From NCBI GenBank assembly GCA_938743325.2, contig OW568890.1:1-64000 (forward strand): a stretch of 64,000 nt of DNA, given 5' to 3'. Below, in pieces: positions 1 to 64,000 of the stretch (the first letter of the stretch is position 1; the number at the start of each line of letters is the position of its first letter). Origin of the DNA: Pycnococcus provasolii. Lineage: Eukaryota; Chlorophyta; Pseudoscourfieldiophyceae; Pseudoscourfieldiales; Pycnococcaceae. Both the position numbers and the translations under genes were made by a program. The notes below the pieces were generated by a model. It was not told the DNA's origin, ran no database searches, and was given only the letters and a program-made list of their open reading frames with translations.

Positions 1-235
1 CTAACCCTAACCCTAACCCTAACCCTAACCCTAACCCTAACCCTAACCCTAACCCTAACCCTAACCCTAACCCTAACCCTAACCCTAACCCTAACCCTAA
101 CCCTAACCCTAACCCTAACCCTAACCCTAACCCTAACCCTAACCCTAACCCTAACCCTAATTGTAACCCTAACCCTAATTGTAACCCTAACCCTAATTGT
201 AACCCTAATTGTAACCCTAATTGTAACCCTAATTG
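1..235. repeat. Telomere repeat array (CCCTAA)n with TTGTAA variants
   Basis: After a partial CTAA, 26 perfect CCCTAA hexamers run from 5 to 160, which marks the left end of the window as a chromosome terminus (TTAGGG-type on the complementary strand). From 161 the array degenerates regularly: TTGTAA hexamers replace CCCTAA at 161, 179, 197, 209 and 221, and a last truncated one starts at 233. The spacing tightens from 18 to 12 bases, so the innermost part is a 12-base CCCTAATTGTAA repeat. TTAGGG is the ancestral eukaryotic telomere; plants and many green algae use TTTAGGG. The hexamer alone therefore does not fix the lineage. Confidence 0.98.
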
Positions 236-3823: not shown

Positions 3824-4139
3824 CGGCGGCGGCGACGGCGCGCTCGTGCGCGCGCTCGAGCACCTTTGTGCGCAAGCTCTTGCGCATCTCTGCAAGCTCT
3901 GGCGGCGGCTTGGGCTCGCGTGGCGCGCGTGGCTTCGGTGCGGCGGCGGCCGCCTCGTGCGGTTTTCACTGCCCGGTGCGTGGGAAAAAAACGACGGTAT
4001 TACAACGAGAAAACAACTTTGGGAATGCAACAAGGACGGAATGCAACAAGCACAATCCATCATCCATTTCGATGAATCTCACGCTTCCTCATGTGCCGCG
4101 CAGCAACTTCAGGGTCAGGCAGAGTTCAGGGCGCAGTCT
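3823..4139. other. 3' flank of the Tyr-rich secreted protein gene
   Basis: About 320 bases with a GC-rich CGG/GCG-rich first half and an A-rich second half. Frames here are extensions or shadows of the adjacent gene. A TGTAA motif on the minus strand (plus-strand 4000-4004), 136 bases after the stop codon, matches the polyadenylation signal known from green algae such as Chlamydomonas; whether this organism uses it is not known. Confidence 0.35.
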
Positions 4140-6416: not shown

Positions 6417-6446
6417 CTTCGTTACTACCACTATTATGGTATACTG

Positions 6447-6453
6447 TTTTATA
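6447..6453 (-). promoter_or_regulatory. TATA box for the Tyr-rich secreted protein gene
   Basis: TATAAAA on the minus strand (TTTTATA on plus), with an ATTGG (inverted CCAAT) motif about 8 bases further upstream at 6457-6461. A start of transcription 25-30 bases downstream falls near 6420, which rules out the ATG at 6461 and favours 6416 or 6392. Confidence 0.6.
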
Positions 6454-6894
6454 TGAGCCAATCAACAAACGCCTGCGCGCTGCCAATCTATCAGGTATGA
6501 TGAGGACCAACCGACCAACGCGTGCAGTGATTGATGAGGACGAATCAATGAACGGCTCAATAAATGAACGAAAGGAGCCAAGGTACCATACAAGCCTGCA
6601 AAAGTAGTAAGCTGGCTGCACTAACGAACCACCACTGGGCACCACTCACGAACACATGCAGGAGGCGTGACATGTTTCGCATGAAAATAAAATGGCGAAC
6701 AAATAACGGGCGGAGGGGCCGAGGGTGAAAAGGTCCTTGGGCCAAACAAACTCCCCCTTGTTCTTTCTCACTCTCCTTGGGGGATTCACCGTTGCTTGGT
6801 GCATTTGGACCTGGCCTGTCCTGTCCGCCTGTCCTTGGGGTCCGGCTGGGTTTTGGGTTCGTGCGAAAGGCGCGGCTCTGTGGTGCACTCGGGC

Positions 6895-13614: not shown

Positions 13615-16600
13615 TCAATCTTCCAACAAACAAACAAATCCAAGAAACCTCTGGAGAGTACTCGCGATGATGCCGTCCCACGATATGCTCGATATGTGCT
13701 CTGGTCTGTATCCATGAAGGCGATGCAAAACAGTCTCCGCATCTGCGTTTGCCTTGCATAAAACTTTCGCCTCTGATTCGGCATCCTCCACTCCGCAAGC
13801 CTCCAATAGAAGACAAATGGCTCGCGTCTCCACGCCACATCCAGCGGGAGGTTTCAGCTGCGCCGCTGCGCGTAGTGCATCATCCCGAACCCTCACAAAC
13901 TCGGCAACTTCTCTGCCTTGAAGCACGTCGTCAACGCGCTTGGCAGACAAGTGAGATTGAAAGTCTCGCAAGCTGATGATGATCTCCATCTCATCACGAT
14001 GATTCCTCTCCCCTTCTTCCGTCACGAATAATGTTCTCTTCACTCCTCCTCCTGCTCCTCTTGCTCCTCCTGCTCCCTCCACAACCTCCGCCACAAAGGC
14101 TGCGGCACGCAGGGCGTGACTCACGTGTTGTTTCCACGTGCGCGCGGCAACTCCACGAGGTTTCAGTCGAGCGACGGCTTTGACCTGCTGTTGAGTCGTC
14201 GTAGTACTACTATCCATACTACCACTGAGCGCCTCGACAAATCTTTCCGCCGTCGCCACCGAAGAGGAAGGAAAGAAGCGTTTGGCTGCGTGGTACACCG
14301 CGAGTGCCGCATCTGCGTCGTTCGCGTCTGGCTCAAAGAGAAGCACCATGACAGCAGCAGTTTCCTCCAAAGAGCGCGCGAGTGACGTGGCCAGCGCAGA
14401 TCCGTACCGACCTCTTCCACAAACCGCAATCCTCCTCCTTCTCCTCCTTCTCCTCCCACTTAGCCACGTTTCGACCCTTCTCACGACGTCATGGTAGTGG
14501 CCTGTCAACTCATCCAGGCTCGTCTCATCCACCTCAGCGTTGAGTAGCGAATCTTCTTCTGGCAATGCGATGCCAAACACAGGCGCTGATGCAATATATC
14601 CCATGAGCTGTCGCAACGAGGAAACGTCACCAGAAGCGTCGTGAACAACATACACAGCGTCGACACCACCAGAATCATCGGCAGCGGTAGTTGTTGTAGT
14701 CGCAATCCCATGAAACGTGAATGTCAACGCGGTTGCGTTCAGCGGCACGATGGGCTCCACGACGACATCTGACGGCGGTATACTACCACTACTGCTCTCC
14801 TCGTCCTCCTCCTCCTCCTCGTCGTCCTCCTCCTCGTCCTCCTCGTCGTCCTCCTCCAACATCAGCATGTTCTCAAGGAGCTGCTGCCCCTTCTTCTCCT
14901 TCTTCTTCGCTGCTGTTGTTGTGATTCCCATTGCCTCCAAATAAGCTTTCATATCACTTTTCTCCTCCGTAGACAAAATGTCGCCGCCACTACTTTTACC
15001 CTCAACATCAGATGCGTCATCATGATGCACCACCCAACCAAATGCGCTGAGCTTCTTCTTCATATCCTCAATCAGCACCTGCATGCTATCACTTCTGAGC
15101 ATGCTGAAATGATCTTCGGGAACGTCCACAATCTCAAGATCGTCAGCAACTTCTGACCAAATCAAGCCGTGGTCAGCGCCGTCATCCATGTAGGCAACTG
15201 CACCTCTCCGCGAAGCTCGGTAGTACGTCACGCGCCCTTGAAGTCGCCTTCCCTCTTCGAATTGGTGCCATCGTATGTCAGATCGGCTGGACCCAGTCTT
15301 TACCGCCGTCGCGATTGCAAGAACCTGCTCTCGCACCTCCTGAGCGGTGAACTTTTCGTTTCGCATCACGCGATAGACGGGCGCAAAGTACTCGTATCTA
15401 TCCATCGTGCTCATGTCCGACCAGCCTGCGCTAGCATGCCCAAAATCAATCGCCGCTAAAATCATTTCCATGAGCTCGAACGCGTCTTCGTCTGTCGCCT
15501 CCCCCTCCTCCTCCTCCTCCTCAGCAGCAGCTACTGCTACTCCCCTCACCTGAAGCGGATGAGGTGCGTCGAAGACGAATACGTGGCCCACCTGTTCGCC
15601 GCGTCGCTCGAGCTGCAGGGCAACCTCCATCGCGACCACACCACCGTAGCTGTGGCCGCCAATCAGGTACGGCCCTCGCGGTTGCACGCGAAGAATGTCT
15701 TTGACATGCACCGCCGCGAGCTCGGAGATGTTCTTCGAGTCGTCCTTCTCGAGCGTGTAGATTGGCTGGTCGCTCCAACTTAGATGGCTGATGAAGCTGA
15801 AGTACGCCGACTGGCCATTTGCTACTCCTGGAGCGGCGAGGAAGAGAGGGCGCACCGCCGCACCTCGCAACGTGCGCAGAGACGCGGGCAAGGAAGAGGA
15901 GGAGGAGGCATCACCACCACCGCCTCCGCCGCCGTCACCACCAGCAACTCCAGCTTTTTCTTCTTCCTCACCTACTTGTACGGAGGAGGCAGCTGCGAGC
16001 TCTTCGCAAACGAACTTCGCAATCTCGCCAATGCTCTGGTAGTCGTACAGCAACGTTGCCGGAAGCCGCTGATCGAATACCTCGGAGAGCGTGCCACGAA
16101 GCTCCATGCCAGCTTGTGAGTTCAACCCTGAGCTCATCAGTGGGTCGTCGCTGTGCACGGAGTACCCGAGAATGGATGCCACCTCTTCAGACACCATCGC
16201 GCGCACCTCAGACTCAGACACGCGGCGACGATGATGATGACCACGTGCAGCATCATCCCGACGATAATCAGCGTCAGCATCAGCATCATGGGTGGTGGTG
16301 GCCGGCAACTGACATTCAGCCATGACGACAGAATCTGATGGCGATGACGACGTGAATTCTTCCATGCAGCTGATGAGGCGAATCGAGGCAACTCCGGCAA
16401 CCTCGAGTGAAATGTGGTGCAGATTGCTGCGGCGGTGGCGGCTACAATCGCCTACTGCATCGTCAGGAACAACGTCGCCGTGAAGTTGCAGCATTGCTTC
16501 CTCATGTGCACCACCACCACCACCACCACCACCACCGTGAAAGGCTAGCGCCTCGATTGAAAAACCTCGAGAAGAATAGTTAACTTCTTCTTCTGCTGCT

Positions 16601-19600
16601 GCTACCATCGGAGGATTACTGTTGCCGCCGCTGTTGCTCCGATTTGTTGCTGCTGCAGCCATCGACGACAGCCTGCTTGCGGCTGCAAAACCGAGCGACA
16701 CTGACTCACCAATACTGCGCATCGTCAAGTCATCACCTCCTGAGGCGGCGTGCGGACGATAGCTCATGGAACCGGCAAACGTGGTTTGTGACAGCGCAAG
16801 TAGTCGTGCACGTGATGACACTCCATGCCGAAGAAGCGACTGAGTGTGAGTTCCACTTACGATTTCGACCGGAGGAAGGATGCAATCGCCACGATTCGAT
16901 CGAATGGAAGAGGAACACAGCCCGCCCCTCACAGCTGTCGATGTACAAGCGCCACCACCAGCATTCACGTCTACAACAATACGCTTCGCGGTAGCCTGAA
17001 TCGACGAATGCGAGCGTCCCGTCAATGATGATACATGCAAAACGCCGGTGAAGGCGAAGAACTTGCACGTAAAATACGAAGTGGCAGTAAGGAATCTATC
17101 CTCTGATGCCGTCGAGTTGCAAAGCACCTTAGATAGAACGACGTGCTGCTGCGATTGAGATTGTGACCAAGATGGACCACCACCACCACTACCAGCAGCT
17201 GCAGCACGATTCTTCATCACTGATGGCGACGGCGATGGTGCGTAGATTCCATGGCGCTGTGGCAAATCGCGCATAAACGCAGCAGGAAGCTCGACTAGCA
17301 AAGCCAACAGGCTAAGCTTATCAAACGGCTGTAGTGTGCTTTGCTGCAACGCTGACATGCGCACATCCAATTGCACAGGCGTCCTCCGAAGATCGTTTTT
17401 AGGTATGCTTGTTATCCTGCACATGGCAAGGAGAGGCTCGACAGTGCGTTTCACCGAGCATCGACCAAGGATCAATGGCATGCGATTATGATTATGATAC
17501 GTGGTTGTCTCCGCCGCCCCCCGTGCGAGCACGGCACTTGCATTGGTGCCCTGAGCTGCAAACGCGTTCACAACACCCGCCAACAAGCAAGTTGAGCCGT
17601 TACCATCGAAGCCACTGTGCGACGCGAGAGCCCCGGCTTCACGGCATGCAGATAAATGCAGTGCATTATTGCGGTGCGATGACTGTACGCCAGTTGCACC
17701 ATCACCGCCAATGGCATGGGCCACGTGTGGATTGAGGCGCTTAAGATGCAGGACTGGCGCGATTGAGACCGCCGACATTGATTTCACTGCATGTGCTAAA
17801 AGCACGGCGCCAGCAGCAGCTTCGTGGTGCCCCATCTGCGGCTTGCAAGTGCTTGTAACGAGTGGCTCACATCCAGGTTTTGCGTGCACCGCTACGACGG
17901 ATGCCACCTCGACAGGATCGGCAAGCGAAGATCCATTCGCATGGAGTTGTGCAAGCCGAATGCACACACATGAATCGTCAAACAACGCTCTTCCTTGCCG
18001 CCGGATCATCGCGGATCGCATTACAGCCTGCTGCGACGGACCAACGGGGGCAACGAAGGAAGCGCCCGTACCATTGTGACTGACAGCTGACCCAATGAGA
18101 GCAAACGTGAACATCCTGCGATCATTAGCACCGTCGTCTGAGGCGGAGGCGGTCAAGCTGCCTCGTTGAAGCATAATAGATGTGCATGACTCGCCGCGTC
18201 CATATCCTCCAGCATCGGCGTCAAGAACACGGCTTCTACCGTCCATTGCTAGGAAGCCGGCGCGACTAAGTACAGCCGAGCTTCTCGGGTCGAGCAGGAG
18301 ATTTACACCGCACGATAGTGCTTGGCACTCCGAGTCCGTCTGAGGTTCCGATCCTCCGCCGCCATCATGCAGGATGCAGTTACGTGACATATGGCACGTC
18401 ACTAGCGAAGATGAACACGCCGTGTCAACACTGACCGCCTCGCCGTGCAGATTAAAGGTGTAGCAAAGACGGCCTGAAGACGCGGAATGAGCGGACGATG
18501 TAAAAGTATATCCGCTGATTCCTATAGAAGCGTGCTTTGATGTGACGGATTCGTAGTCTGAAGAGGCAATACCGACAAATGCGGATGTGGATCGAAAGTT
18601 CTTCTTTTTGTCGCCGGATGCACCCAAATTTCGCTTGAGCACAGCCAGTGAAGTAAGCAGAAGCTGGCGATGCTGTGGATCTAATAGGGCTGCCTCGGTC
18701 GGCGGAAGTGAAAACGCGCGAAGGTCAAAGCCTTCAACATCGACGCCATTGATAAAGCTCGCAAAGCGACTCACATCATCGTTGTACGTTGCACTCGTCT
18801 TCTCAGCATCCCAGCGTTGCAGAGGTACCCTTTTGCAGAAATCAGAAACCGATGCAAACATAGAATCTAGCATCGCATCTGCAGAATTTGGAAGCACAGA
18901 ATCCATATCTGAAATCGAAGTGATCGTGGAATCTTGTGCACCGTCCTTCGCGCAACTTGAGGTGATTCTTTCAGCATACAATACGTCCTCATCATTCGAA
19001 TCTGTGTCATCGGGTGCAAGCCGCGACGTCACGTACGATGCCATCGCAGATACGGTCGGATAGTCGAAGACGAGCGTGCCCGGCAGCTGCAGTCCCATAC
19101 GCGTCTCAACAGCATTTCTGAGCTCAACGGCGCCGAGCGAGTCGAGACCCGCCGCCATCAGCGGCTCGTCAGCCGACACGTCCGACCCGAGCACGCCGCG
19201 GATCGCCTCGGACAGCTGCTGCTGCACGTGCTGCTCTGACGCAGCATGCGGCTGCGCGCCGCGTCGGCGTCGTGTGCCCGCGACTTCCTGAGACTTCGTC
19301 TCTGCCAGCGGCGCGACGCCCTCCTCGGCAGCACGCACGTCGGCGAAGAACGCCGCGTCCGCGTACGCAGGCTGCTGCGCGAGGAAGCGCGTCCAGTCGA
19401 ACGGACTCACCGTCAGCACAGCGCCAGCAGGTGCACTCGCTCTCAGCAGCGACGATAGCGCGCCGCCAAGCACCGCCAAGCCCAACTCGGGCGTCACGAC
19501 GCCCACGCCCGCACGCTCCATGCGTCCTATCGTCGAAGCGTCGTTCGCCGCCATGCCGCCGCCGATCCACGCGCCCCACTGCAAGCTCAGCACCCGCTCG

Positions 19601-22600
19601 CCGCTCGCATGCGCGGCGTGCGCGGCGGCGTCGAGCGCGGCATTCGCGGCGCAGTAGTTGGACTGCCCCGGCGAGCCGAGGAACGCCGCCAGCGACGAAA
19701 ACAGAACCTGCGCCGATACCGCGTTCGCGTGTGTTGCTTGCACCAGCGTTCCCAGGCTGTCCACCTTCGCCGCAAACACGCGCCGCACGCCTGACGCGCG
19801 CTGCTGGGCGAGCGTCGCGTCCGCGAGCACGCCGCCGGCATGCACGACCGCGTTCGGGCCATTTGCCGCCGTCACGACGGCGCGGTCGCCCGCGGTCGCG
19901 GCGTCGCAGCGCTGCATGCGCACGAGCGACGCCGAGGCGACCAGGGCCTCCAATCCCTCACCACGACGACCAGATCGGCCGAGCAAATGCAGATGACAAG
20001 TCGACATGCTCGCGAGCCACGACGCCGTGAGAGCTCCGAGATTGCCCAGCCCGCCGCACACGAGCACGCCGTCGCCGACGCCGCCAGCGAGCACGTCGTC
20101 GCGCACCGCCCGCGGCGAGCACACCACGATCTTGCCCACGTGTCGCGCCTGCGACATCTGACGCAGCGCGGCGTGCGACCGCACGAGCGTGTGAGCGGTG
20201 GTACTCAGCGGCCGATACTGCATGGTGCTCGCGCACGTGGCGACGCGGTGCATGCCCTTGCGCATCGCGGCTTGTGGCAGGAAGTCCACCGCCACCAGCC
20301 GCAGCGTCGCATCAGATCGCTCAGCGCCGAGCGTCGCCGCCGTCCAGATGTCGCGCTTGCCAATCTCCACGAAACGAGCGCGAGAGGACATGCAGCTGAC
20401 GGTCGCCGCCACGACGCCCGCGGACGTGAGCGAGTTGAGCACCACGTCGACGGCTCCGAGCGTCATCGACGCCACGTCCGGGAACGTCGTCGCGCGCGAG
20501 CTGCCGACGTGGCGCACCGCCGGCGCGTGCGATCTCACCCAGTAACGCTTCGCGCTCGAGCCCGCGGTCGCGTACACCGTCGCGTCCAGTGCGCCGGCGA
20601 GCTGTGTCGCAGCCACGCCCACGCCGCCCGCCGCGGCGTGGACCAGCACGCGCTCGCCGCCGCGCGTGCGAGCCGCCTGGCTCAGCGCGAGGTCCACCGT
20701 CACGAAGACAGTTGGCATGCTCGCCGCCGCCTCGTGCCGCAGATGCGCGGGTAGAGCTGCGAACGTGTCGCCATACGCGTGCACGTAGTTGCCGAGACAT
20801 CCGGCGGCGAGACCGAACACGGACTCGCCCAACGCCGCCGTGCGAGCGCAGGCGCGTGCCACCGTGCCGGCGCAGTCGCCTCCCGGAGGACCCGGGTCGC
20901 CTGGGTACATGCCGAGCACGTTCAGCACGTCGCGGAAGTTGATGCCGACTGCGGACACACGCACGCGCATCATCGTCGAGCTGGCATCGTCGCCAGCCGC
21001 CTCGACGACTGCGATAAGATCCTTGATCGCGCCACGCGGCTGCGGACGCAGCTGCACAGCATGTTCGGGCGTCGCGGCGGTACAGCGGCGCACGCCCGCG
21101 CGCATCCAGTACCCTCCTCGATACGCATGGCCCTGAGCATCGGCGTCAACGATGTTACGCGAATGCGGCAGGTGCAATGCAAACTCGTCTGCGTCCGTAC
21201 CACCAGTCAGAGCTGGATGTCGAAGTTCTTGTGCAGCCGTGCGCCACAAACCACGTATCGCGGCGCCGTCTCGACTGCTTGACGAAGTGCGGGTCATGGC
21301 GGCGACGCTCGCCACCGCGCATGCGGTCTGCAGATGAACAGCCACGCTCTGCTCCGAATTATCAAGCAGGGATAACGTCTGCACCACGCTCAGCGCAGCG
21401 TACACAGACGATGAGATCCATGCTCGGGCACTGGACGCACCGTCGACACGTATCGTCGTCGTTGCCAACGCGCGAGGAGCAGCCGTCGTCGCATCTGCTG
21501 TCTGCGCAAGCCATCGGATCGCGTACATTGCGTCGCGCGTCGAGTGTACCGCGATCTTCGTGCTCGTCGTAGCCCCTTTGGTCATCGGCTTCGCGACCAG
21601 CTCGCTCATGTGCATCAGCGTCGCGCCCGCATCCGTGCGCAGTCCGAAGCTGCATGTCACGTCCGCGGTCGACGCGTGCAGACGCGCCCACACCTGCAGA
21701 CGCGCGTCCGACGTCGCGCGCGGCGTCGTCGTGTACAGCGATACGGCTGCGGGCACGCGCGCTACTGCGGCATCCTCGTCGGGAGACTCGAGCGCGTTGC
21801 CGAGCTGCATCGCCGCGTCGAGTGTCGCGGGATGTATCAGCAGACCCGTGACACGTGTTCGTGCAGGCTGACATACGACGCCCGTCGCCTCATCGATGCC
21901 GCGTCGAGACGCCGCGCGCGTGCGCACTGCCTGCAGCATTTGGAACGCCGGGCCGTACATCAGCCCGATGCCGTGCATCGTCGAGTACAGCTCGTGCGTG
22001 CTTGACGCGGTGGTACAGCGCGCGCGCATTGAGCTGGTGCTCGTACGCTCGAACGAGCGCGACGATGCAGCGTCGTCAGCGGTGCTTGTCGACGACGCCG
22101 TCATCCTCGTAACGATGCCGCGTAGGTGTGACACGCCTCGCGTGCGCGAACGCACGTCGACGTGCCCCGAAGCGACGCGCAGAGCGCACGTCACATCCAC
22201 CGCCGATCCGTCGAGCACAAGTGGCGCGGGGATGCTGACATCCGCAAGTGCCGCACAGCATGCTTCGCCGTGCGCGCCTACAAGCACCACAGCCGCGGCG
22301 CTCGCCGTCTCGAAGTATCCCGCGCCGGGGAAGATGCCCTGCCCGCGTACACGATGGTCGTGCAGATACGCAGCCACGCCGCGCGATCGCATTTCGATCA
22401 TCGCGACATCATCGACGACGCCGTACGCGAGCATCGGATGTGACGTGAGCGTGAACCAACGTCGATCGGCATGGTACACGCCGCGCAGACGGCGGGTGGT
22501 ACCCACCGCCGCGCGATCGACGTCGTCGCGCAGACCGACCAGCGCGTGCGCATTCGTGCCCTGGAAGGCGAACGAGCTCACGCCTGTCGTATGTGCCGCC

Positions 22601-25600
22601 GGACTCGCACTCGACGCGCGGGGCGCCAGACATGCGCACGCGCCGCCCATCGAAAGCACGACGCGCACGTGCGGGTTCATGTCGCGCAGGTGCAGAATGG
22701 CGGGCGCGTGCGGGACGGCGAGCGTGGAGGCGGCTGCCATCACGCCGACGATGCCCGCCGCGGGCTCCGTGTGTCCGATGAACGTCTTGCTCGCCGAAAG
22801 CGTGATCGCGACGCCGCCAGGCTTGCTAGTCAGCACGGCGGTAGCGGCGCCCACCTCGATCGGGTCGCCGAGCGGCGTGCCTGTGCCGTGCATCTGCAGA
22901 CCCGTGACGGTCGAGGCGTCGCGCACGCGTGCGTCACGCATCGCGGCGCGGATGGCATCCTGCTGCGCGGGTCCGTTCGGCGCCGTGAGCGCGCTCGAAC
23001 GGCCGTCCTGGTTGACGGCGCATCCTCGCAGCACCGCGCCCATGCCGCCGCTGCACCCGCCACCCTCGCCGATGCTCACACCGCCGATCTGCACGGCACC
23101 GCCCGCCTCGCCGCGCACGTAACCGTCTGCACCGCCATCCAGCGTTTTGCACCGTCCGTCAGGGGCAAGCATGCCTGCGACGGCGAACATCTTCGTCGTC
23201 ACGGGTATGAGATGCAGGCTGATGCCAAGCAATGTGGCGGCGTGCTTGTCAGATGTACGCGCGTAGGGAACGGCGAAGACCGATGCGGTAAGTGCGGACG
23301 AGCAAGCCGTATCCACACTTATGCTGAAGCCGGTGTAGTCGAAGATGTACGACAGACGCCCGCAGGCGACGCTTCCCGAAGCTCCTGTGGCTGAATATGG
23401 TGTGACGCCGCCGCTCATGTGCGTCGTGGCAAGCCTTGCGTACTCGGCGCTCGAAATGCCGACGGCAACACACCGCTGCTGCGTTTGCGCGCCTTCGCTT
23501 GAAGAAGATGCGTGCAGAGTCAGCAGAATGCGCTGCTGCGGGTCCATCAGCACCGCCTCCGCAGTTGACACGCCGAAGCAAGACGCGTCGAACATGTCGA
23601 CGTTGCGCATGAAGCCGCCAAACCGACGCACAAGCGACGCGTCGTCGCCCGTGCGCAGCGCCTCCGCCTCCGCGTCCCACCGATCGAGCGGAATACCAGC
23701 GATGCCGTCCGAGCGTCGGCCGGACTCCACGTGCTCTCCAGGCGTGCATCCCGCCGACGATGTCACACAAGCCATCACGCCGTCGCTCGTCAGAGACGAG
23801 TCAGCCACGCTCGCTATGTCGTCGTCAGCAGCGAGCTCCTCGTCGTCGGGTGCAAGCCGCGACGTCACGTACGATGCCATCGCAGATACGGTCGGATAGT
23901 CAAAGACGAGCGTGCCCGGCAGCTGCAGTCCCATACGCGTCTCCACAGCATTTCTGAGCTCAACGGCGCCGAGCGAGTCGAGACCCGCCGCCATCAGCGG
24001 CTCGTCAGCCGACACGTCCGACCCGAGCACGCCGCGGATCGCCTCGGACAGCTGCTGCTGCACGTGCTGCTCTGACGCAGCATGCGGCTGCGCGCCGCGT
24101 CGGCGTCGTGTGCCCGCGACTTCCTGAGACTTCGTCTCTGCCAGCGGCGCGACGCCCTCCTCGGCAGCACGCACGTCGGCGAAGAACGCCGCGTCCGCGT
24201 ACGCAGGCTGCTGCGCGAGGAAGCGCGTCCAGTCGAACGGACTCACCGTCAGCACAGCGCCAGCAGGTGCACTCGCTCTCAGCAGCGACGATAGCGCGCC
24301 GCCAAGCACCGCCAAGCCCAACTCGGGCGTCACGACGCCCACGCCCGCACGCTCCATGCGTCCTATCGTCGAAGCGTCGTTCGCCGCCATGCCGCCGCCG
24401 ATCCACGCGCCCCACTGCAAGCTCAGCACCCGCTCGCCGCTCGCATGCGCGGCGTGCGCGGCGGCGTCGAGCGCGGCATTCGCGGCGCAGTAGTTGGACT
24501 GCCCCGGCGAGCCGAGGAACGCCGCCAGCGACGAAAACAGAACCTGCGCCGATACCGCGTTCGCGTGTGTTGCTTGCACCAGCGTTCCCAGGCTGTCCAC
24601 CTTCGCCGCAAACACGCGCCGCACGCCTGACGCGCGCTGCTGGGCGAGTGTCGCGTCCGCGAGCACGCCGCCGGCATGCACGACCGCGTTCGGGCCATTT
24701 GCCGCCGTCACGACGGCGCGGTCGCCCGCGGTCGCGGCGTCGCAGCGCTGCATGCGCACGAGCGACGCCGAGGCGACCAGGGCCTCCAATCCCTCACCAC
24801 GACGACCAGATCGGCCGAGCAAATGCAGATGACAAGTCGACATGCTCGCGAGCCACGACGCCGTGAGAGCTCCGAGACTGCCCAGCCCGCCACACACGAG
24901 CACGCCGTCGCCGACGCCGCCAGCGAGCACGTCGTCGCGCACCGCCCGCGGCGAGCACACCACGATCTTGCCCACGTGTCGCGCCTGCGACATCTGACGC
25001 AGCGCGGCGTGTGACCGCACGATCGTGTGAGCGGTGGTACTCAGCGGCCGATACTGCATGGTGCTCGCGCACGTGGCGACGCGGTGCATGCCCTTGCGCA
25101 TCGCGGCTTGTGGCAGGAAGTCCACCGCCACCAGCCGCAGCGTCGCATCAGATCGCTCAGCGCCGAGCGTCGCCGCCGTCCAGATGTCGCGCTTGCCAAT
25201 CTCCACGAAACGAGCGCGAGAGGACATGCAGCTGACGGTCGCCGCCACGACGCCCGCGGACGTGAGCGAGTTGAGCACCACGTCGACGGCTCCGAGCGTC
25301 ATCGACGCCACGTCCGGGAACGTCGTCGCGCGCGAGCTGCCGACGTGGCGCACCGCCGGCGCGTGCGATCTCACCCAGTAACGCTTCGCGCTCGAGCCCG
25401 CGGTCGCGTACACCGTCGCGTCCAGTGCGCCGGCGAGCTGTGTCGCAGCCACGCCCACGCCGCCCGCCGCGGCGTGGACCAGCACGCGCTCGCCGCCGCG
25501 CGTGCGAGCCGCCTGGCTCAGCGCGAGGTCCACCGTCACGAAGACAGTTGGCATGCTCGCCGCCGCCTCGTGCCGCAGATGCGCGGGTAGAGCTGCGAAC

Positions 25601-52600: not shown

Positions 52601-55600
52601 ATTAGGGTGGCCAGCGAGCTCACGTCTGTATAATCAAACAATGTTGTCGAAGGCAGGTGCAAGTCGAAGTGTGAAGATAACTTCTCGGCAATCACAATGG
52701 CCATAGCAGAAGTCAAGCCGAGATCCCATATGGACTGATCCTCCGTGGTTAAGTCAGGAAGTTGTTCGTGGAGTATGTCGAGAACTCGACTTTCCTGCTG
52801 CAGTCGCGAGGGGAGTCTCATATTAACGTCATCATCGATTTCACGAGACACTGCTGTCGTTGTTGTCGCACCCAGCTCATCGCGGATTAGGGTGGCCAGC
52901 GAGCTCACGTCTGTATAATCAAACAATGTTGTCGAAGGCAGGTGCAAGTCGAAGTGTGAAGATAACTTCTCGGCAATCACAATGGCCATAGCAGAAGTCA
53001 AGCCGAGATCCCATATGGACTGATCCTCCGTGGTTAAGTCAGGAAGTTGTTCGTGGAGTATGTCGAGAACTCGACTTTCTACAACCGCAGAATTTGTGGT
53101 TACGGCTTCATCGGTAAAGTTGACGACGACATCGTCTACCGATGAAGACACTGATGTGGTTCTGGACTCTGACGACGATAAAACGACAAGATCCAACCAA
53201 GCAACTGACAAGCTGTGTCCGTCCGAAGTTCTTCCAGCCGCAATGTCGAGCGCATACGCACTAAGCTGTGACTTGCAAGGTGCGTTCACGACGTAAATGT
53301 GGACAGCAACACTGCTGGTGTCAGTACCTTTTGTATGGAGCAGCAGCAGTGGCTCGAGCTGAGAAAGAAGAATACTTTCATCGTGAGTCGTTGGTGCAAC
53401 AGGTGCGTTTGCAATGACAACATTCTGCACGCCACACGTGTGCACCAGCTTGCATAGAGCACCAACAATATCGCTCATGATATCGGATGTGTACGCGTCT
53501 CGCTCGTTGAGGTCAACAATCAATGTATGGACCAGCGATGATGATGGTACCTGACTCCGATTCTCCTGTACACGATGGTTCGCTCGCTGAGAAGAATCTT
53601 CACCATCCTTTCCAATGGTCACACAAAGTGTGGGGCTACCCAAGACTGTGACTGCACTATCCACATGATATCGGAACCCATCATCCAAGTGTGATGAACC
53701 TTCATCATCACGACTACCGATGCTGATACCACCTCCTACTGCACCTAGTGTTGACTGCTGCTGCCTTACCAGCACGGGCGTCAATCGGCGGTGGGTTGTC
53801 GCCTGCATCTTCTTCTTCAGCTCCTCCTTGCGAATCTTTCCCGATCCCGTCGTCGGCATGCAATCCAACACGCGAATCGAGTACGGAACCTTGTATGCGG
53901 CCAGTGATGCGCGACAAAATGACTGCAAGCTCGACGGCGAGATGTCGCCGCCAGGCTTCAGCACCACGGCAGCTGCCACCATCTCGCCCATGACGTCGTT
54001 CGGCACGCCGAACACAGCCGCCTGCATCACCGCGGGATGCGCGTACAGTGCGCCCTCCACCTCTGCGGTGTACACGTTCTCGCCGCCGACCAGCACCATG
54101 TCCTTGCAGCGGTCGACGATGCGAAAGTACGCGCCTTCGTCGTTGCGCGGAGGCACGGCGAGGTCGCCGGTGCAGAACCACCCGCCCGCGAGGAAGTCCG
54201 TTCTCGCCGACTCGGCGCGGTGCAGGTAGCCCGAAAACACCGTCGCGCCGCGTACCACCACCTCTCCCGCGGCTGGCTCGTCGTAGCCCGCAGTGTCGTC
54301 GTGGTAGCGCGGGCACACAATGCGCACGTCGACGAGCGCGAACGGGCGTCCCGAGCTGCACAGGCTATGCGTCGTGGCGTGCGGCGGCGGCGACTGCAGC
54401 GACATGGCGATCTTGCCACAGCACTCCGTCATGCCGTACGAAAGGAAGAACTCGCACCCGAGCGTCGCCATCGCGCGCAGCGTTGTCGCGGGCGCGAGCG
54501 GCGCGCCGCCGCATGACATGAGGCGCAGGCTCGAGAGGTCCTCCAGCTGCATTGTCGTCGACGACGACAGCATGAGCGACACCATCGTCGACGCGACGTT
54601 CGTGACGGTGATGCGCTCGCGCTCGATGGCGGCGAGCGCGCGCGCGGCGTCGAAGCGCGGCAGAATGACGTGCCGCGCGCCGAGCGCGGTGATTGCGTAC
54701 AGCGCGAATGCGTCGACGAGGTGGAACATAGGCGCGAAGTGGCCCCAGACGTCGGAGGACGCGAGTCGCATCTCGAGCGCGGTTGCCTTGGCGTGGCACA
54801 CGACGATGCGGTGCGTAAGCGTGACACCCTTGGGCTTGCCGGTGGTGCCGGACGTGTAGTAGAGCTGATAGTAGGAAGAAGGCGACTGCTGAGCAGCAGC
54901 GGCAACCTCGCCGCCGCCACCATTCTCTTCGTGCAGTGACGACATCGTCGTCGTCGTCAGAAGGCTGCTTGTGGAAGAGCAGCACAGCTCGTAGTCGTCG
55001 TCGTCGTCGCTGTGTCCGTCGCTGGATGATGACGACGTCCACAGCACGGGCACCGAGGTACCCGCATCCGACAGGGCGCGCGCGTACTGTCGCTCCGCGA
55101 CGATACACATCGGCGATCCGTCGTCGAGGATGTGCGCAAGCTCGGGGCCGACGAGGTGCACGTTGACGTTCAGCACGGCGGCGCCGGCGCGTGCGGCGGC
55201 AAAGTGCACCTCGAGCACACGGTGCGAGTTGTTGAGCATGCACGCGACGACGAAAGAAGAAGAAGATGATGCTGATGATGAACGCTGTGGAGGTGCTGGT
55301 GGTATTGTGCTGGTGGTGGTGGTGGTGGTCGTCGTCGTCGCGTGGCATCGTCGACGTTGTAGGCTGCAAAGATGCGCGGCGAGTGCCTCACACCGGCGAA
55401 GGCACGTGCTGTATGCAAGTTCAGATGTTGTGCTGTGCATTTGATCTCTGCTGCGTAACGTTGTGGTGCTACTGATGATATGAACACCATCCTTTTGTGT
55501 TGACTGGTCTGCGAGGAAGCTCCATATGTCATCCATGCAGCAATCTGACGTTTTCTTGGTTTGCATGACACCATGTTCAGATGAACTCTCTGGAAGTTGG

Positions 55601-58600
55601 GCTTTCGCAATGTGTGAATTCAGATTGCATGATGCATGAGATGCATGAAGCTGCATTTCTCGGACGAGTTCGGCGAAAGGCGATGAAGAAGAAGAAGGCG
55701 ACGACGTCACCACCGAGTCTCCGTCGATGCAGGTGCGAATCAGCCATTCAAGGCTGTTGACGATGGCATCCGCTCGGCAAGGTGCGATGGTGTCGGCAGC
55801 GTACATGAGATGGCCGTGCAATTCGCCACTTTCATCACGCCCCATTGCAAGCCAGTAATCAAATGCGGCATGCTCCATCGTGAGACTCGAGCCATCGTAG
55901 CCCGTGGGGAGGTAGCTGAAGTTGCTTGTGAAGAGCGGATTCACGCCCGGGGCAGCTCGTGGGACACGCATGGTGGAAAGTAATTTGTCCCAAGGCACGT
56001 CAGGATGTGAGAAGCACGCAAGTACGACGCGTTTTACGCGCTGCGTGCACTCCGCAAGAGTTTCGACCGGTGAGCTCACTGAGCTGCCACCCGTGGTGGT
56101 GGTCGCGTCGGTGCCGAATGTGCACCGGACAGGTAGAATGCTCGAAAAGCATCCCATGGCATCTCCGCGCACGCCAGTGTTTTTCAACCTCTTTCCTCCT
56201 AATTCTCCACCACCTCCTGCAAGGATTCGTAGGTCGAACGGCGTCCCCACGGTAACGGCGCACGAATCACGTCCAGCATCCGTTGACTGGCTGTGAAGCG
56301 TGATCATCCATGCAGTCAACAAGACGTGAAAAAGGCTGCAGCCATGGGAAGCTGCCCACCTCGTGAGCTTTGTCACGTCTTCCGCTCGAAGCGACGGTAG
56401 GGGTACAGATGCGTTGCGCACCACTGGAATCTGCGCTGTCAGGCGTGGATAGTCAGTCATGGGGCGAGTCGGAACGAAAATGCGTTCGCCGCTGCTGCCG
56501 TGTTGTTGCGTGTCGCCACAGAGCACGCCAATCCAGAATGCCAGCGCATTTGCAGAAGCTGCATCAAATTGTCGATGATCTCGCTGCAACGCAAAGTAGA
56601 AGAACGAGTAATCCTCCTCCTCCTCCTCCTCCGCGTGGTTGTGGTCGTGCTGTGACAGGAGAATGCCATCGCCAAGCTGTTTGCTCCGAGCTTCTGCCGT
56701 AAAACGAGCGCGAATTTCCGCGGCTGATGTGACAAGTGATCGCCAGTCTGCGACAATGTGATGAGCTGTCACGAGAACGAATACACGCCGATGACAACCA
56801 AATTCAGCAGCGGCAGTAACTTCGTCGTCGTCATCTGCACGTGACGTCGTCGCCGCCATCTTGTTTTTGCAAACGTAGACGACGATCTTCAACGCGCGGA
56901 TGAGCGGCCCAGTTGCTAGGTTCATCGGATCGCCGAGTGCCGCAACGCCCTCGCGCACTGCAGCTCGTCGTGCGATGGCGTCCACGCTCTCCTCCTCCAC
57001 TTCCTCTTCTACATCGTCAGCAGTTCTTGCAGAAACCGCACGAATCGTCGTGGTACTTAAGTCAAACCAATCCAAGGGTAGGATTTTCTGCACATCGCCC
57101 CGAGGGAAGTATGCGCGCAGAGCGACATGCTTAGCTACTGTCTGGCGAAAGCATTGCCGCAGAAGATGCGTTTCTTCTTCTTGTGCTGCATCATCGTCGT
57201 GTTCGGAAGTCGGATATGGAAGGAGAACGTTCAGGTGGTATGCGGTGTTGGTCGGCTGCAGGGCACAGAACGTCCAGAACACGCGCTGCTCCTGAGTCAG
57301 CGGCCACGATTCGACACGTCGCGCCACATCTCTCGCAACACTTATGTTAACCAGCTCTGTCAGCTCTTCGTCGTCTTCTCTGCCACCATCCCATGCATCA
57401 AGTCGTGTACGTTGATTTTGCTGAATCCCATCATCGTCATCGCAAACCGCCGTCGCCGATTCTGCCAAAGGAAGCCTGGAGGCTGCTGTCGCCACCCTTG
57501 CGATTTCCCCCGCGAGCTCCGCAGGTGTTGGCATGTCAAATAGCAGCGTAGACGGAAGACTCACCTGAAAGCGAGCTGAGATGGCATTTATCAGCTCCAT
57601 CCCTGTAAGCGAGTCTGCACCCTTCTCGAGCAGCGACTCGTCGCTTCCGACATCCGTCCCGAGCGTGGCTCTGAATATGCTCTGCAGCTGCTGCTGCACA
57701 AAAGCGGTGGTGGTGGTGGTGGTGGTACTAGTGCTCGCTAACGTCCCAGATGATGCTGCCGCCGATTCTGCCAAAGGAAGCCTGGAGGCTGATGTCGCCA
57801 CCCTTGCGATTTCCACCGCGAGCTCCGCAGGTGTTGGCATGTCAAATAGCAGCGTAGACGGAAGACTAACCCGAAAGCGAGCTGAGATGGCGTTTATCAG
57901 CTCCATCCCTGTAAGCGAGTCTGCACCCTTCTCGAGCAGCGACTCGTCGCTTCCGACATCCGTCCCGAGCGTGGCTCTGAATATGCTCTGCAGCTGCTGC
58001 TGTATAAAAGCGGTGGTGGTGGTAGTGGCAGAAGAGCTGATTGGAGTCGTCGGCGGCGGCGGCGGCGAGGTGGTGATGGTACTAGCGCCAGACTGCTTGC
58101 CAAACAGGTGCGTTTTCACACCCGCCTTGATTGCATGCTGTCGTAGCAGATTCAAGTCAATCGGAGAAATGATGTGGACAGGCGAGACGACATTCGCAGC
58201 ACAATTCACGAGGGGGGCGCACAATGACATCGAGAGTGCTTGCAGGCCATCGCGTGTAGTCAGCACACCTAGGCCGATGCGCCTAAGCTTGGCAAGTACT
58301 GCAGGAAGGCTCGATGCCATGCCCACATCTTCCCAACCTCCCCACGCGAGGCTGACTCCCGATACGCCTTGATTGCGAATCTGGGCACACTGCGCGTCGA
58401 GAATGGAATTTGCGGCGGAATAGTTCGCTTGTCCAGCGGTTCGAAATGTTGCCGCGACAGATGAAAAGAACGCGATGACGTGAAGAGGTTCGCGAGGCAA
58501 CGACGTGCCGTAAATGGCTGACGCTGATGACGACGGCACGGCAGTACCCTTTGCCGCGAACGACGCGCGTGCACCACCCGGCGTCTGGCTCGCCAGCATC

Positions 58601-61600
58601 GCGTCGTGCAGAATCCCAGATGCATGAATGCATGCACTGCAACGCGTTGTGGAGTGTCTCAAGAGAGCGGCTGTCACCGTATTCTCCGCAGAGGTGTCGA
58701 CGTTGCACCGAGAAAGTGTGAGCAGCGCGTTGCCATTCTCGTGTGCCAATTGCTGCCGATGACCGCGACGTCCTTCTTCTCGCGGATGAGCTCGAAACCG
58801 CCCTGAGCGGCCTAAAAGATTAATCCGTCGCGCAGTGCAGTACGTCTTGAGGTACGTTTGTGTCATCCATCCCAGCGAGCCGAGACCACCTGTGATGCAA
58901 ACGACGCGCATGCACGACAGCGACGCGGCTGCGAGTTTCGACGGCTGGTGGCCTTGCCGATGCATCGCAGGTGCTAGATGTGGTGTGTAATGAGCACGGG
59001 ATGTGCACACGATGCCAAAGTCGTCATAAGAATCACCGTCTTGTGCATCACCCGTCTTTGACGAAGCTGGAAGGTGATGATGATCCTGCTCAAGGACGTT
59101 GAGTCTGCAGCAGTAGTAGGAAGAGGATGTAGAAGTAGTGTCACCACCAGCGGCGAACATGTCCGAATGAATACCGCGGAATGATGGCAGCGGTTGATCA
59201 TCATCACGCCTCCTTGATTCTCTCTCCGCAAGCCACGTACGTGCTAATGACCAATGTATGGTCGCCACATGATGACTTCGCGAGGATGGCAGCATGACTG
59301 CAGGCGAACTTCCGCGGGGAGTAAAGGCCATCGGCGTGCATGCGGCAAAGGTGCTGAGGAAGCAAGAGGATATATCACCATCGGTCACTCGAGTGAACGC
59401 TTGCAGCGACCTCAGGAAACAGGTTGCTAAAGATGGACGTTCATCATCGTTTCGCTGGTGGTGTTCAGTAGTAACCACGTCGAAAGCTCGCCGCCTTGCC
59501 GGGCTGGCGCGCGAGGACATGCTGGTAGCGGCAGCGGCGGCGGCGGCGGCAGCCACCATCCCCTCCTTCGCCTTCTTCGCGCCTCCTCGTGAGCACAGCC
59601 AGCGAACCTCATACAGAGGCGGCGATGAGGCAGTATCAGCAGCATCATATCGTCGTTCCTGTGTTGTTGGCTGGTGTCGCACAGGGCGTGTCTCAAGGTT
59701 GTGGAGAGTGCACAGAGGAGATGTCGAGCTATCCAAGTAAATTCGATGCGAGGAGATCGAGGAATTCTCCGTGATTTGACGCATATTCACGACGACTTGG
59801 AGCTCGCCAGATTTGCGTGAAATGGCATGTGGTGCTGTCATCACAAAATTTGCAAGGCTCACTGGAACGCGAAGCGCCGAAGACTCGCCGTGCTGCGTTG
59901 CCGCAGTCACCACCATCGGTGCATGGATTGCGGCGTCAAGATGGCCTGGATGCATGCACCATAGGCTTGCATTGTACGTCGCGGGGTCACATGCACTGAC
60001 AGTCGCAGTTATGTGCTTGCCACGGATATCGTGTGCAATTCTCTGTAGACACGCAAACGACCGGCCATACTGCAAGCCAAGTGCTTGCATGTGATCGTAC
60101 GCCCACACCGTGGATGCCGGAATCGCCGCCTTCGTGGAAGAATCCGTCTTCTCTGTGGCAGCGGTGATGATGCGCGGCGCCTTGTTGTCTGCGACAAACA
60201 CCGGCATAGTCGTCGATCGTGCCGATGCGTATCGATGTGCACGTCCGCCACTTGCTTGCTTGCGCAGTAGAGTGACCACATTTCCCGACAGTGTATGCAC
60301 CGAGCATGCCACGACAGTTGTACCGTGAAGTACGATAGGCGCATGGATGACTAAGCTTGCAAGACATCTGCTGCTGCTCCCACCATCGCCATGATGATGG
60401 GACGGTGATGATGCTGTCGTTATTGATGAGGTGGATGCAGCCGCACGCTTAAGCTCGAGGAAACAAGCTGCTGGTAGCAAGGCGCGCCCTTGCACCACAT
60501 GCTCCTGAAGGAATGCGAGGCGCGCGTTGTGTGCAAACGCCATCTCGTACGCAATAACCCCAGGCTCCGAATTGTTGCTGCTGTTGTAGGCGGCAACTGT
60601 GCTGGCGGTGCTGAGGAGTGGATGCGGTAGCGGTGTGATCCAGTGCGACTGCAAGAATGTTGTGCGACTGCACGCATTCTTCGCTGTTGTTGGCGGCAGT
60701 AGTAGCACATCATCGTGGGACTTGTTGACTGCGATGATAGTGCCAGCGGCGGCGTTTGTTCCCTGGAAAGCAAATGCGCTGATATTCGCTCCCTTGTGGT
60801 TCATCGAGGCACTCGACTGCCTCCGGAAGAAGAAGAACGCGTCTGATGCTGCCATTGGTCGCTTTTTCGTCGCCTCGTGAGCACAGTAAGGATTCATCGT
60901 TCGCAGGTGTTCAATCGCTGGCAGAATCCCATCGCCAAGTCCACGCGAGGCTGCTAGAATGCCATTCAAACCCGCAGCTGCTTCAGCATGACCAACACGG
61001 CTCTTCGAAGCAGAAAGCTGGAGACGATGATCTGGATCACCGCCAAGCAGAGTAACAAATACCGTGGCAGCTGCGCTGAACTCTATTGGATCGCCCAGTG
61101 CTGTTCCCGTTCCGTGCATCTGCAAATTAGAAACAACTGTCGTCGTAGCAGCACCGTTGTCGCTGTTGCCGCGGACAAGCAGAAGGTCGAGGCATCCACG
61201 CAAGACAAGGACTTGGGCAGGTCCATTTGGTGCGGTGAGCGTGCTTGATCGGCCGTCTTGGTTCACGCTCGTGGCAATAAGGAGATGACAATCAGACGAT
61301 GATGACGACGGCGGTGGCGCTGAGCTCGCGTGTAGGCCGGCGATCGACTCACTTCGCACGTACCCATCCGCGTCACTGTCGAGCGCCTTGCATCGGCAGT
61401 CGGGAGCAAGCATACCCGCCGCTGCGCAAGTTGCCGTCCATCGCACTGCAAGCATGACATTCGAGCCAAAGCAGAGACTCGTCGTTGCCACCGTGTGCGT
61501 GGACGCCTGCTGCGTCATGCGAGCGAGGTGAGTGCTGACAAGTGCGCTGGAGCAGGCTGTATCGACGCACACAGCCGGTCCCCCGCATCCAAACAGGAAC

Positions 61601-64000: not shown

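What the first reader, a model, noticed from the sequence alone, without database searches (positions are those of the whole stretch)
13615..64000. Uninterrupted PKS reading frame of at least 16,794 residues next to a telomere
The frame is open from the stop at 13615 to the window edge, with no intron needed anywhere. It combines two AMP-ligases, one condensation domain, nine KS and eight single or grouped carrier sites before a thioesterase. Its N-terminus lies further right, so the protein is larger still. Known giant algal PKSs show that such proteins exist, but this order (ligase-PKS-condensation-ligase-PKS) is not one I recognise.
Basis: partly seen in the sequence, partly recalled or inferred. 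Interest (0 to 1): 0.85.

Follow-up and report, generated by a model that had tools for sequence, protein, structure and literature searches.

The report
Giant intron-free green-alga polyketide synthase
Next to a chromosome end, this green alga carries one unbroken 51.6-kb gene for a 1.8-megadalton enzyme assembly line that probably makes a long, wax-like hydroxy fatty chain, and its near-identical units look as if they keep overwriting one another except at parts that may decide what each unit does.

Summary
The minus-strand frame runs stop to stop over C30:13618-65187 (17,190 codons; 17,171 aa from the first Met, 1.80 MDa); the N-terminus lies only 1.1-1.2 kb beyond the window. Order: ligase-ACP2-KS-DH-KR-ACP2-C-ligase-ACP3-[KS-DH-ER-KR-ACP]x2-[KS-DH0-KR-ACP]-[KS-DH-ER-KR-ACP]x4-KS-ACP-TE. 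No AT was found in it; stand-alone AT candidates lie elsewhere. The host is a green alga; this is a new member of the known chlorophyte trans-AT giant PKSs (Shelest 2015), with 23,586- and 13,856-codon unbroken relatives in the same genome. What looks new is the mosaic: long tracts of modules 2-8 are 97-100% identical DNA and abut islands of about 30-60%: a KS segment (~68-183) around the active cysteine, the dead-DH, ER-less part of module 4, and module 2's KS-DH. Tract GC3 is 0.775 against 0.530 elsewhere, as GC-biased gene conversion would give. First KS halves follow position (KS5, behind the hydroxyl module, joins its counterpart in a sister gene, 100/100), second halves follow the gene. 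Likely product: a long saturated acyl chain with one programmed mid-chain hydroxyl. Product, expression and the C-ligase step are untested.

The parts
1..235 (.). telomere: CCCTAA repeats to ~160, then degenerate CCCTAATTGTAA-type repeats
   Evidence: read directly
13615..64000 (-). giant PKS frame, in-window part; continues to C30:65187 (first ATG ~65130); 17,190 codons stop to stop
63298..64000 (-). AMP-ligase 1 (loading); domain runs to 64749 outside the window
   Evidence: duplicated stretch C30:63265-64896 is 98.7% identical in DNA to ligase 2
62095..62550 (-). two tandem carriers with GVTS motif (ligase-linked type)
60745..61962 (-). KS1
58309..60528 (-). module 1 DH and KR, no ER
57499..57990 (-). 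two tandem carriers (GADS)
55618..57177 (-). condensation (C) domain, HHIVAD motif
53782..55419 (-). AMP-ligase 2, recent copy of ligase 1 (DNA 98.7%)
52231..53067 (-). three carriers, GLTS/GLTS/GVTS
46981..51864 (-). module 2 KS-DH-ER-KR-ACP; KS-DH part diverged, ER-KR-ACP part 97-100% identical to module 3
42151..46860 (-). module 3 KS-DH-ER-KR-ACP
38344..42030 (-). module 4 KS-DH0-KR-ACP, no ER: predicted hydroxyl-forming
40555..40749 (-). module 4 island 1: DH N-part without HxxxGxxxxP, GC3 0.35
39382..39825 (-). module 4 island 2: ER-less DH-KR linker, GC3 0.42, shared with sister gene on C5 (62 of 141 aa)
33532..38223 (-). module 5 KS-DH-ER-KR-ACP
37531..38001 (-). KS5 island (KS residues ~75-231): own type, shared with C5 KS 11104
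28696..33411 (-). module 6 KS-DH-ER-KR-ACP
23860..28575 (-). module 7 KS-DH-ER-KR-ACP
19024..23739 (-). module 8 KS-DH-ER-KR-ACP
19006..37530 (-). tandem array, period 4,836 bp (1,612 codons), copies 99.4-99.6% identical
17527..18864 (-). terminal KS9: DTACSSS kept, HGTGT replaced by HANGS
16003..16194 (-). last carrier (GLNS)
15028..15867 (-). thioesterase, GHSYG nucleophile motif

Best explanation
One gene, readable as a single exon, for a non-iterative trans-AT type I PKS of the chlorophyte kind. (1) A ligase activates a carboxylic acid and loads it on dedicated GxTS carriers. (2) Modules without AT are charged by stand-alone acyltransferases. (3) After the second ligase, modules 2 and 3 add saturated C2 units, module 4 (dead DH, no ER, intact KR motifs) leaves one hydroxyl, modules 5-8 add four more saturated C2 units, and the TE releases the chain. 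Starting from a C16-C18 acid this gives about a C30-C32 acid with the hydroxyl at C11 (C32-C34 and C13 if the odd terminal KS also extends): a very-long-chain mid-chain hydroxy acid suited to a resistant wall polymer. (4) The repeated modules are kept nearly identical by intragenic, GC-biased gene conversion or recombination; selection keeps two things from being overwritten: the KS segment around the active cysteine, which matches each KS to the chain it receives, and the hydroxyl-forming part of module 4. Shown here: frame, domains, motifs, identity mosaic, GC3 contrast, conflicting trees. Inferred: expression as one protein, GC-biased conversion as cause, the KS segment as specificity cassette, the product and its use. 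The step of the C domain plus second ligase is a guess: ester formation onto a hydroxylated acid, or a second loading point.
For: Frame and coding signal. Domains and motifs. No AT match in the frame by Pfam at E 0.001; the genome-wide AT search gave 5 places: C29 (in another PKS frame), C13, C26, C4, and one on C13 below cut-off. Green-alga host: Lhca3-type protein, best match 6ijj. Acyl/aryl ligase type. Module 4: HxxxGxxxxP not found and no ER, KR motifs intact; its counterpart on C5 also lacks the DH motif and ER. Mosaic: tracts of 97-100% next to blocks of about 26-62%. GC3 in tracts of at least 96% identity against the rest: 0.775 vs 0.530 (C30, 11,312 of 17,190 codons), 0.784 vs 0.591 (C22, 9,611 of 23,586); 0 of 2000 mask rotations reach either difference. 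The pooled contrast holds in each of six domain types; C5, which has no such tracts, is at 0.624. The KS island has about the same limits in two genes. KS first-half tree: KS5 + C5 KS 11104 at 100/100, and one clade of C30 M3-M8 is rejected, p-AU 2.7e-7; second-half tree: C30 M3-M8 one clade, 98/94. Bacterial trans-AT KS phylogeny tracks substrate (PMC7930024, passages).
Against: No transcript, protein or metabolite. Copy number of the 4.8-kb tandem units could be misassembled. The two C22 KSs behind KR-only modules (5187, 8272) do not join KS5/C5 11104, so the KS segment may mark ancestry rather than substrate. A recombination-shuffled cassette would look much like a protected one. Not every near-identical tract is GC-rich: the tandem carrier copies at residues 2388-2578 and 4037-4226 have GC3 0.63-0.65 and 0.53, and per-domain ranges overlap (KS 0.71-0.81 in tracts, 0.47-0.81 outside). 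GC3 could be raised by something other than conversion. The test groups were chosen after the FastTree was seen. Starter length and KS9 activity are unknown. Module 1, the C domain and the second ligase do not fit a plain hydroxy-acid line.
Confidence: 0.65

Rival explanations
1. Same kind of PKS, but the near-identical modules are simply very recent tandem duplications, without ongoing conversion.
For: M6-M8 with most of M5 form a clean 4,836-bp tandem array at 99.4-99.6%; the tandem carrier copies are near-identical without high GC3; module duplication is the published explanation in algae (PMC4661987).
Against: Identity stops sharply inside domains and resumes (M3 against M4, M5 against M6, KS3 against KS6); M2 and M3 share only the ER-KR-ACP part; the two ligases, about 9.5 kb apart with different neighbours, are also 98.7% identical; the GC3 contrast and conflicting half-domain trees are not expected from plain duplication.
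Confidence: 0.2
2. Assembly artefact: collapsed or expanded repeats make one giant frame out of several genes.
For: Exact runs up to 1,863 bp between tandem units; no reads available.
Against: The frame stays open through unique parts on both sides of the array; the repeat period is a multiple of three; two further giant frames on other contigs share the plan; M6 and M7 differ at 21 sites, 14 of them synonymous.
Confidence: 0.06
3. Hybrid PKS-NRPS making a peptide-polyketide: the C domain and second ligase add an amino acid.
For: C domain with HHIVAD, followed by ligase and carriers; the nearest solved match of the C region is a PCP-C didomain, over its C-terminal part only.
Against: The second ligase is a copy of the loading ligase; by name, none of the 60 best of 205 PDB matches and none of the 25 best of 107 NCBIfam models is an amino-acid A domain; its carriers are the same GxTS type as after the loading ligase.
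Confidence: 0.15
4. The product is a membrane, signalling or defence polyketide and not a wall hydroxy acid.
For: Functions of nearly all algal type I PKSs are unknown (PMC4661987); the first ligase-KS-DH-KR part and the C domain imply a more complex product.
Against: Six fully reducing modules and one hydroxyl module give a lipid-like chain; a C. reinhardtii type I PKS mutant is impaired in forming the durable zygospore wall (PMC11808291 passage).
Confidence: 0.35

Closest known systems
Chlorophyte non-iterative trans-AT type I PKSs (CvaPKS1, CrePKS1, OluPKS3, MicPKS2; Shelest et al. 2015, PMC4661987)
   Same: MDa size, many KS modules without AT, Lig domains, nearly identical modules, deviant terminal KS (HANGT in CrePKS1/VcaPKS1, HANGS here), occasional C domain
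   Different: Two near-identical ligases, one in mid-line behind a C domain; 1.80 MDa here and 2.47 MDa on C22 against the 1.2 MDa quoted there for Chlorella variabilis; conversion mosaic with GC3 contrast, which the parts of that paper read here do not describe
Chlamydomonas PKS1 (Heimerl et al. 2018; paper itself not seen, mentioned in passages of PMC11808291 and PMC12636532)
   Same: Giant green-algal type I PKS; similar terminal KS motif (motif from PMC4661987)
   Different: Function here unknown; orthology not tested because no sequence of it was at hand
PKZILLA proteins of Prymnesium parvum (recalled; only search listings seen)
   Same: Giant algal PKS as one protein (recalled)
   Different: Haptophyte; larger; product a ladder polyether toxin (all recalled)
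GRINS of bacterial assembly-line PKSs (Nivina et al. 2021, as described in PMC10394414 and PMC9899208, passages)
   Same: High identity between parts of one PKS, attributed to gene conversion
   Different: GRINS have GC and TA skews above 25%; 0 of 203 one-kb windows here have both. The signal here is GC3, in a trans-AT line
Long-chain hydroxy acids and diols of Nannochloropsis algaenan (PMC8511707, PMC11211512, passages)
   Same: Proposed start: a KS+KR-only step leaving one hydroxyl, then full elongation cycles to C30-C32
   Different: Other phylum; there elongases were proposed for the later steps; here all steps would lie on one protein

Membership tests
Type I PKS (criteria of PMC4661987) | KS with DTACSSS and HGTGT plus another PKS domain | tested here: met
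   9 of 9 KS have DTACSS(S/A); 8 of 9 have HGTGT, KS9 has HANGS
Type I PKS (criteria of PMC4661987) | Multimodular (non-iterative) layout | tested here: met
   nine KS, each followed by at least one carrier; that each works once is inferred
trans-AT PKS | No AT in the modules, stand-alone AT in the genome | tested here: met
   no Acyl_transf_1 match in the frame; stand-alone candidates at C13, C26, C4; that one of them serves this PKS is untested
Chlorophyte giant PKS clade (clades 6/9 of PMC4661987) | Host is a chlorophyte | tested here: met
   Lhca3-type antenna protein places it among green algae; chlorophyte class and species not identified
Chlorophyte giant PKS clade (clades 6/9 of PMC4661987) | KS domains fall in that clade | not tested
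   no KS sequences of other algae were at hand
Chlorophyte giant PKS clade (clades 6/9 of PMC4661987) | Near-identical modules | tested here: met
   M6/M7 99.57% DNA
CrePKS1 orthologue | Terminal KS with HANG(T) motif | tested here: met
   HANGS
CrePKS1 orthologue | Role in zygospore wall | not testable with these tools
   needs mutants
NRPS module | C domain with HHxxxD | tested here: met
   HHIVAD; Pfam Condensation E 2.5e-12, match covers profile 232-358 of 456
NRPS module | Amino-acid A domain | tested here: inconclusive
   best matches are acyl/aryl-CoA ligases; specificity not measured
GRINS | GC and TA skews above 25% in ~1-kb repeats | tested here: not met
   0 of 203 one-kb windows have both skews over 0.25

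The most novel reading that the evidence does not exclude
The gene is a self-editing assembly line: GC-biased gene conversion continually overwrites modules 2-8 of one eukaryotic trans-AT PKS, and what survives un-overwritten marks the residues that set substrate choice. A ~115-residue KS cassette around the active cysteine, with about the same borders in two giant genes, and the dead-DH, ER-less segments of the hydroxyl module are such survivors, while unequal exchange of 4.8-kb units adds or removes C2 steps between hydroxyl and carboxyl: four fully reducing modules on C30 against one on C5. The genome would thus be a natural map of PKS specificity and a chain-length ruler.
Probability: 0.43. 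Interest if true: 0.75.

Novelty: new member of a known kind. Interest (0 to 1): 0.55.

Why it matters
Giant algal PKSs are known but nearly all lack a known product. Here the module logic makes a concrete, checkable prediction (a mono-hydroxylated very-long-chain acid), and a sister gene with three fewer fully reducing modules after the hydroxyl module predicts a shorter spacing. The conversion mosaic points to a short KS segment as the part that stays unblended, which bears on the open question of where KS substrate choice resides and where modules can be recombined. A 51.6-kb and a 70.8-kb reading frame without need of introns, in a 32-Mb genome, also test the limits of transcription and translation of one message.

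Tried and rejected
Nannochloropsis as host was my first guess from genome size and telomere and the reason for the paper searches; the Lhca3-type antenna protein makes it a green alga. GRINS as the conversion agent was rejected. A fresh deletion as origin of module 4 was rejected: its two islands are diverged from the other modules and island 2 is shared with C5 (62 of 141 aa); island 1 is no closer to C5 (17 of 58 aa) than to M5 or M6 (18 and 17 of 61), though both lack the DH motif. 'The first KS half predicts the substrate everywhere' was not upheld: the two C22 KSs behind KR-only modules form a pair of middling support (91/75) away from those of C30/C5. Helper genes next door: none recognised by eye among ORFs listed right of the gene in C30:65200-80000 (minimum 150 and 250 aa, no family search); on the left a cadherin-like repeat protein and two ORFs without Pfam match. 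Pfam at E 0.01 gave nothing for five stretches of the giant between or after domains: 62548-63300, 58900-59772, 53038-53817, 16168-17550 and 13618-15030. Species: not identified; the 18S search (Rfam RF01960) failed twice for technical reasons, and no Rfam family reached its threshold in the window. Whether this genome is published cannot be told from here. Searches for a published link between gene conversion and algal PKSs (listings; passages of PMC6731263, PMC12636532, PMC10394414) showed none in this library, which lacks most subscription papers; I did not open the other listed papers except those cited. Trees used all 31 KSs of the three giants; KSs of the smaller PKS frames (C2, C24, C29, C40) were not used. 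The labels of what each KS receives are my own inference.
Full report
Observation. It is open from the stop at 13615-13617 to the window edge (16,794 codons). The window is the first 64 kb of contig C30 (596,126 bp) in a 32.3-Mb, 46-contig assembly. With the next DNA of that contig the frame closes at an upstream stop: 17,190 codons, C30:13618-65187, first Met at codon 20; from that Met the protein has 17,171 residues and 1,795 kDa. The other five frames of the stretch hold 273-506 stops each, and a Markov estimate of a stop-free run of this length is about 10^-177. The contig begins with CCCTAA repeats.

Two more such frames were found in the genome: C22:237404-308161 (23,586 codons, 2,473 kDa from its first Met) and C5:1056931-1098498 (13,856 codons, 1,454 kDa), both also unbroken. 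So the finding is one of a set of three and not the largest.

Host. The genome has at least 51 matches to the chlorophyll a/b-binding family; one translated locus is nearest to Lhca3 chains such as 6ijj and 7yca (that these come from Chlamydomonas and Ostreococcus is recalled). It is a green alga; the species was not identified.

Anatomy. Pfam and HMMs built from the gene's own domains give, from the N-terminus: ligase, 2 ACP, KS1-DH-KR, 2 ACP, C, ligase, 3 ACP, module 2 (KS-DH-ER-KR-ACP), module 3 (same), module 4 (KS-DH-KR-ACP), modules 5-8 (KS-DH-ER-KR-ACP), KS9, ACP, TE. That is 2 ligases, 1 C, 9 KS, 8 DH, 6 ER, 8 KR, 15 ACP in 11 groups, 1 TE. No AT is found in the frame; the genome-wide AT search gave five places: C29 (inside a 2,669-codon frame that also holds a KS), C13, C26, C4, and a sub-cut-off one on C13.

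Motifs. All nine KS of C30 keep DTACSS(S/A); eight have HGTGT; KS9 has HANGS. Shelest et al. 2015 report HANGT in the terminal KS of the Chlamydomonas and Volvox enzymes (PMC4661987). The DH of module 4 lacks HxxxGxxxxP and module 4 has no ER, while its KR keeps its motifs, so the expected output is a hydroxyl. The C domain has HHIVAD. The TE has GHSYG. All 8 of 8 carriers that follow a ligase in the three giants read GxTS, whereas 31 of the 34 other carrier matches read GxDS; the exceptions are GLNS (C30 last), GILDS (C5 last) and a truncated C22 match (my count). I know of no name for this difference.

Ligases. The two ligases are 98.7% identical in DNA over 1,645 bp and in 535 of 545 residues. 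The best PDB matches are feruloyl- and fatty-acyl-CoA synthetases, and the best NCBIfam models are long-chain-fatty-acid CoA ligases, well below their cut-offs. They look like carboxylic-acid loaders rather than amino-acid A domains. The C22 giant has the same ACP-C-ligase-ACP-ACP-KS core, so the arrangement is not a one-off.

Mosaic. Modules 6 and 7 are 99.57% identical in DNA over 4,836 bp, and the array from residue 9220 to 15394 repeats at 99.4-99.6%. Identity is patchy by block. Module 2 is unlike module 3 in KS and DH (blocks of 30-62%) but 97-100% identical through ER-KR-ACP. Module 4 is 98-100% identical to module 3 except in two islands (DH start; DH-KR linker with the ER missing). 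KS3 and KS4 share one version of the KS segment around the active cysteine, KS6-KS8 another, KS5 a third; KS5 also differs to 70-80% over residues ~10-50. M8 leaves the array in its last linker before KS9. The segment covers KS residues about 68-183 between KS3 and KS6 and, in a different gene, between two KSs of C22; against KS4 or KS6, KS5 differs over about 70-235 (read in blocks of 20 residues).

GC3. Codons in tracts of at least 96% identity have GC3 0.775 against 0.530 elsewhere in C30, and 0.784 against 0.591 in C22; 0 of 2,000 rotations of the mask reached either difference. C5 has no such tract and stands at 0.624. Pooled by domain type the contrast holds in all six (tract/non-tract: KS 0.771/0.602, DH 0.773/0.559, ER 0.842/0.656, KR 0.820/0.621, ACP 0.749/0.599, ligase 0.845/0.670 with only two of each), so it is not a matter of which domains are repeated; single domains overlap, however (KS 0.71-0.81 against 0.47-0.81). 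Islands inside the array are low: module 4 at 0.35 and 0.42, KS5 at 0.47. Against the reading, the tandem carrier copies (residues 2388-2578, 4037-4226) are near-identical at GC3 of only 0.63-0.65 and 0.53, as plain duplicates would be. On the whole this is what GC-biased gene conversion would leave. It does not meet the GRINS definition as given in PMC10394414: 0 of 203 one-kb windows have both skews over 0.25.

Trees. With all 31 KSs of the three giants, the first KS part puts C30 KS5 with C5 KS 11104 at 100/100, and a single clade of C30 M3-M8 is rejected (p-AU 2.7e-7). The second KS part makes C30 M3-M8 one clade at 98/94; the planned test of the KS5/C5 pair on the second part did not run (script error). 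I had seen FastTree versions first, so the AU p-value is not for a group named in advance; the idea that the KS behind the hydroxyl module would be special came, but was not written down. Both joined KSs sit right behind a DH0, ER-less module. Module 5 is also the closest of the C30 modules to the C5 module at 11104 (79% against 73-74% for M3 and M6-M8 and 61% for M4). Against a general rule: the two C22 KSs behind KR-only modules group elsewhere.

Reading. The C-terminal part of C30 (M4, M5, M6-M8, then KS9-ACP-TE) matches the end of C5 (9900, 11104, 12654; 64%, 79% and 39% aa identity for M4, M5, M9) with three modules added. If each module acts once, C30 puts four C2 units between the hydroxyl-bearing unit and release, C5 one. 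From a ligase-loaded acid with n carbons, C30 would give n+14 carbons with the hydroxyl at C11 (n+16 and C13 if KS9 extends). With C16-C18 starters this is C30-C32 (C32-C34), the size class of wall hydroxy acids and diols reported for another algal group (PMC8511707, PMC11211512, passages). A type I PKS mutant of Chlamydomonas is impaired in the durable zygospore wall (PMC11808291, passage). A wall-polymer precursor is therefore the favoured use, but that is inference. What the first ligase-module and the C domain contribute remains open.

Known or new. Shelest et al. 2015 already describe the kind: MDa trans-AT PKSs with Lig domains and near-identical modules in chlorophytes (parts 1-5 of 7 read). 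Chloropicon primus is reported with 12 polyketide synthase genes (PMC6731263, passage). This is a new member, with two sister genes. The conversion mosaic, the GC3 contrast, the KS segment with about the same borders in two genes and the GxTS carriers did not turn up in the listings and passages I saw (searches); no search named the GxTS motif, so this is a weak statement. PMC10394414 (passages) reports GRINS in amoebae and choanoflagellates and says they are less prevalent in trans-AT lines, in part because KSs there are choosy, which fits the protected KS segment seen here.

Noticed in passing
G000:C22:237404-308161 (L011-L018), minus: A larger unbroken PKS frame, 23,586 codons, 14 KS: SAT-like N-terminus, central C-ligase core, and an end with a degenerate KS followed by a sulfotransferase domain (Pfam Sulfotransfer_3), resembling the KS0 + IPR027417 ends of MicPKS2/OluPKS3/OtaPKS1 (PMC4661987); might release a terminal alkene or sulfated product.
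   Followed up: partly
G000:C5:1056931-1098498 (L020-L024), minus: A 13,856-codon PKS frame with HMG-CoA-synthase-like and enoyl-CoA-hydratase domains built in between its third KS and the next carrier, as in beta-branching cassettes (recalled), here in cis.
   Followed up: partly
C30, C22, C5 giants: 8 of 8 carriers behind a ligase read GxTS; 31 of 34 others read GxDS.
   Followed up: partly
window:7799-13534 +: 1,912-codon open frame converging on the PKS, with four Cadherin-like beta-sandwich (PF12733) stretches.
   Followed up: no
window:1949-3208 - and 4143-6461 -: Open frames of 420 and 773 aa near the telomere without Pfam match.
   Followed up: no
G000:C31:133072-142609 and 360395-366434: Twelve chlorophyll-binding protein matches with the same score, in two clusters, both orientations: a very homogeneous antenna gene family.
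   Followed up: no
G000:C2:396490-397020 and G000:C5:1095595-1096125: KS matches with identical score and profile range; C2 and C40 carry smaller PKS frames (2,846-3,410 codons), some near contig starts.
   Followed up: no
window:160-235: Telomere-proximal degenerate repeats of the form CCCTAATTGTAA behind the perfect CCCTAA array.
   Followed up: no
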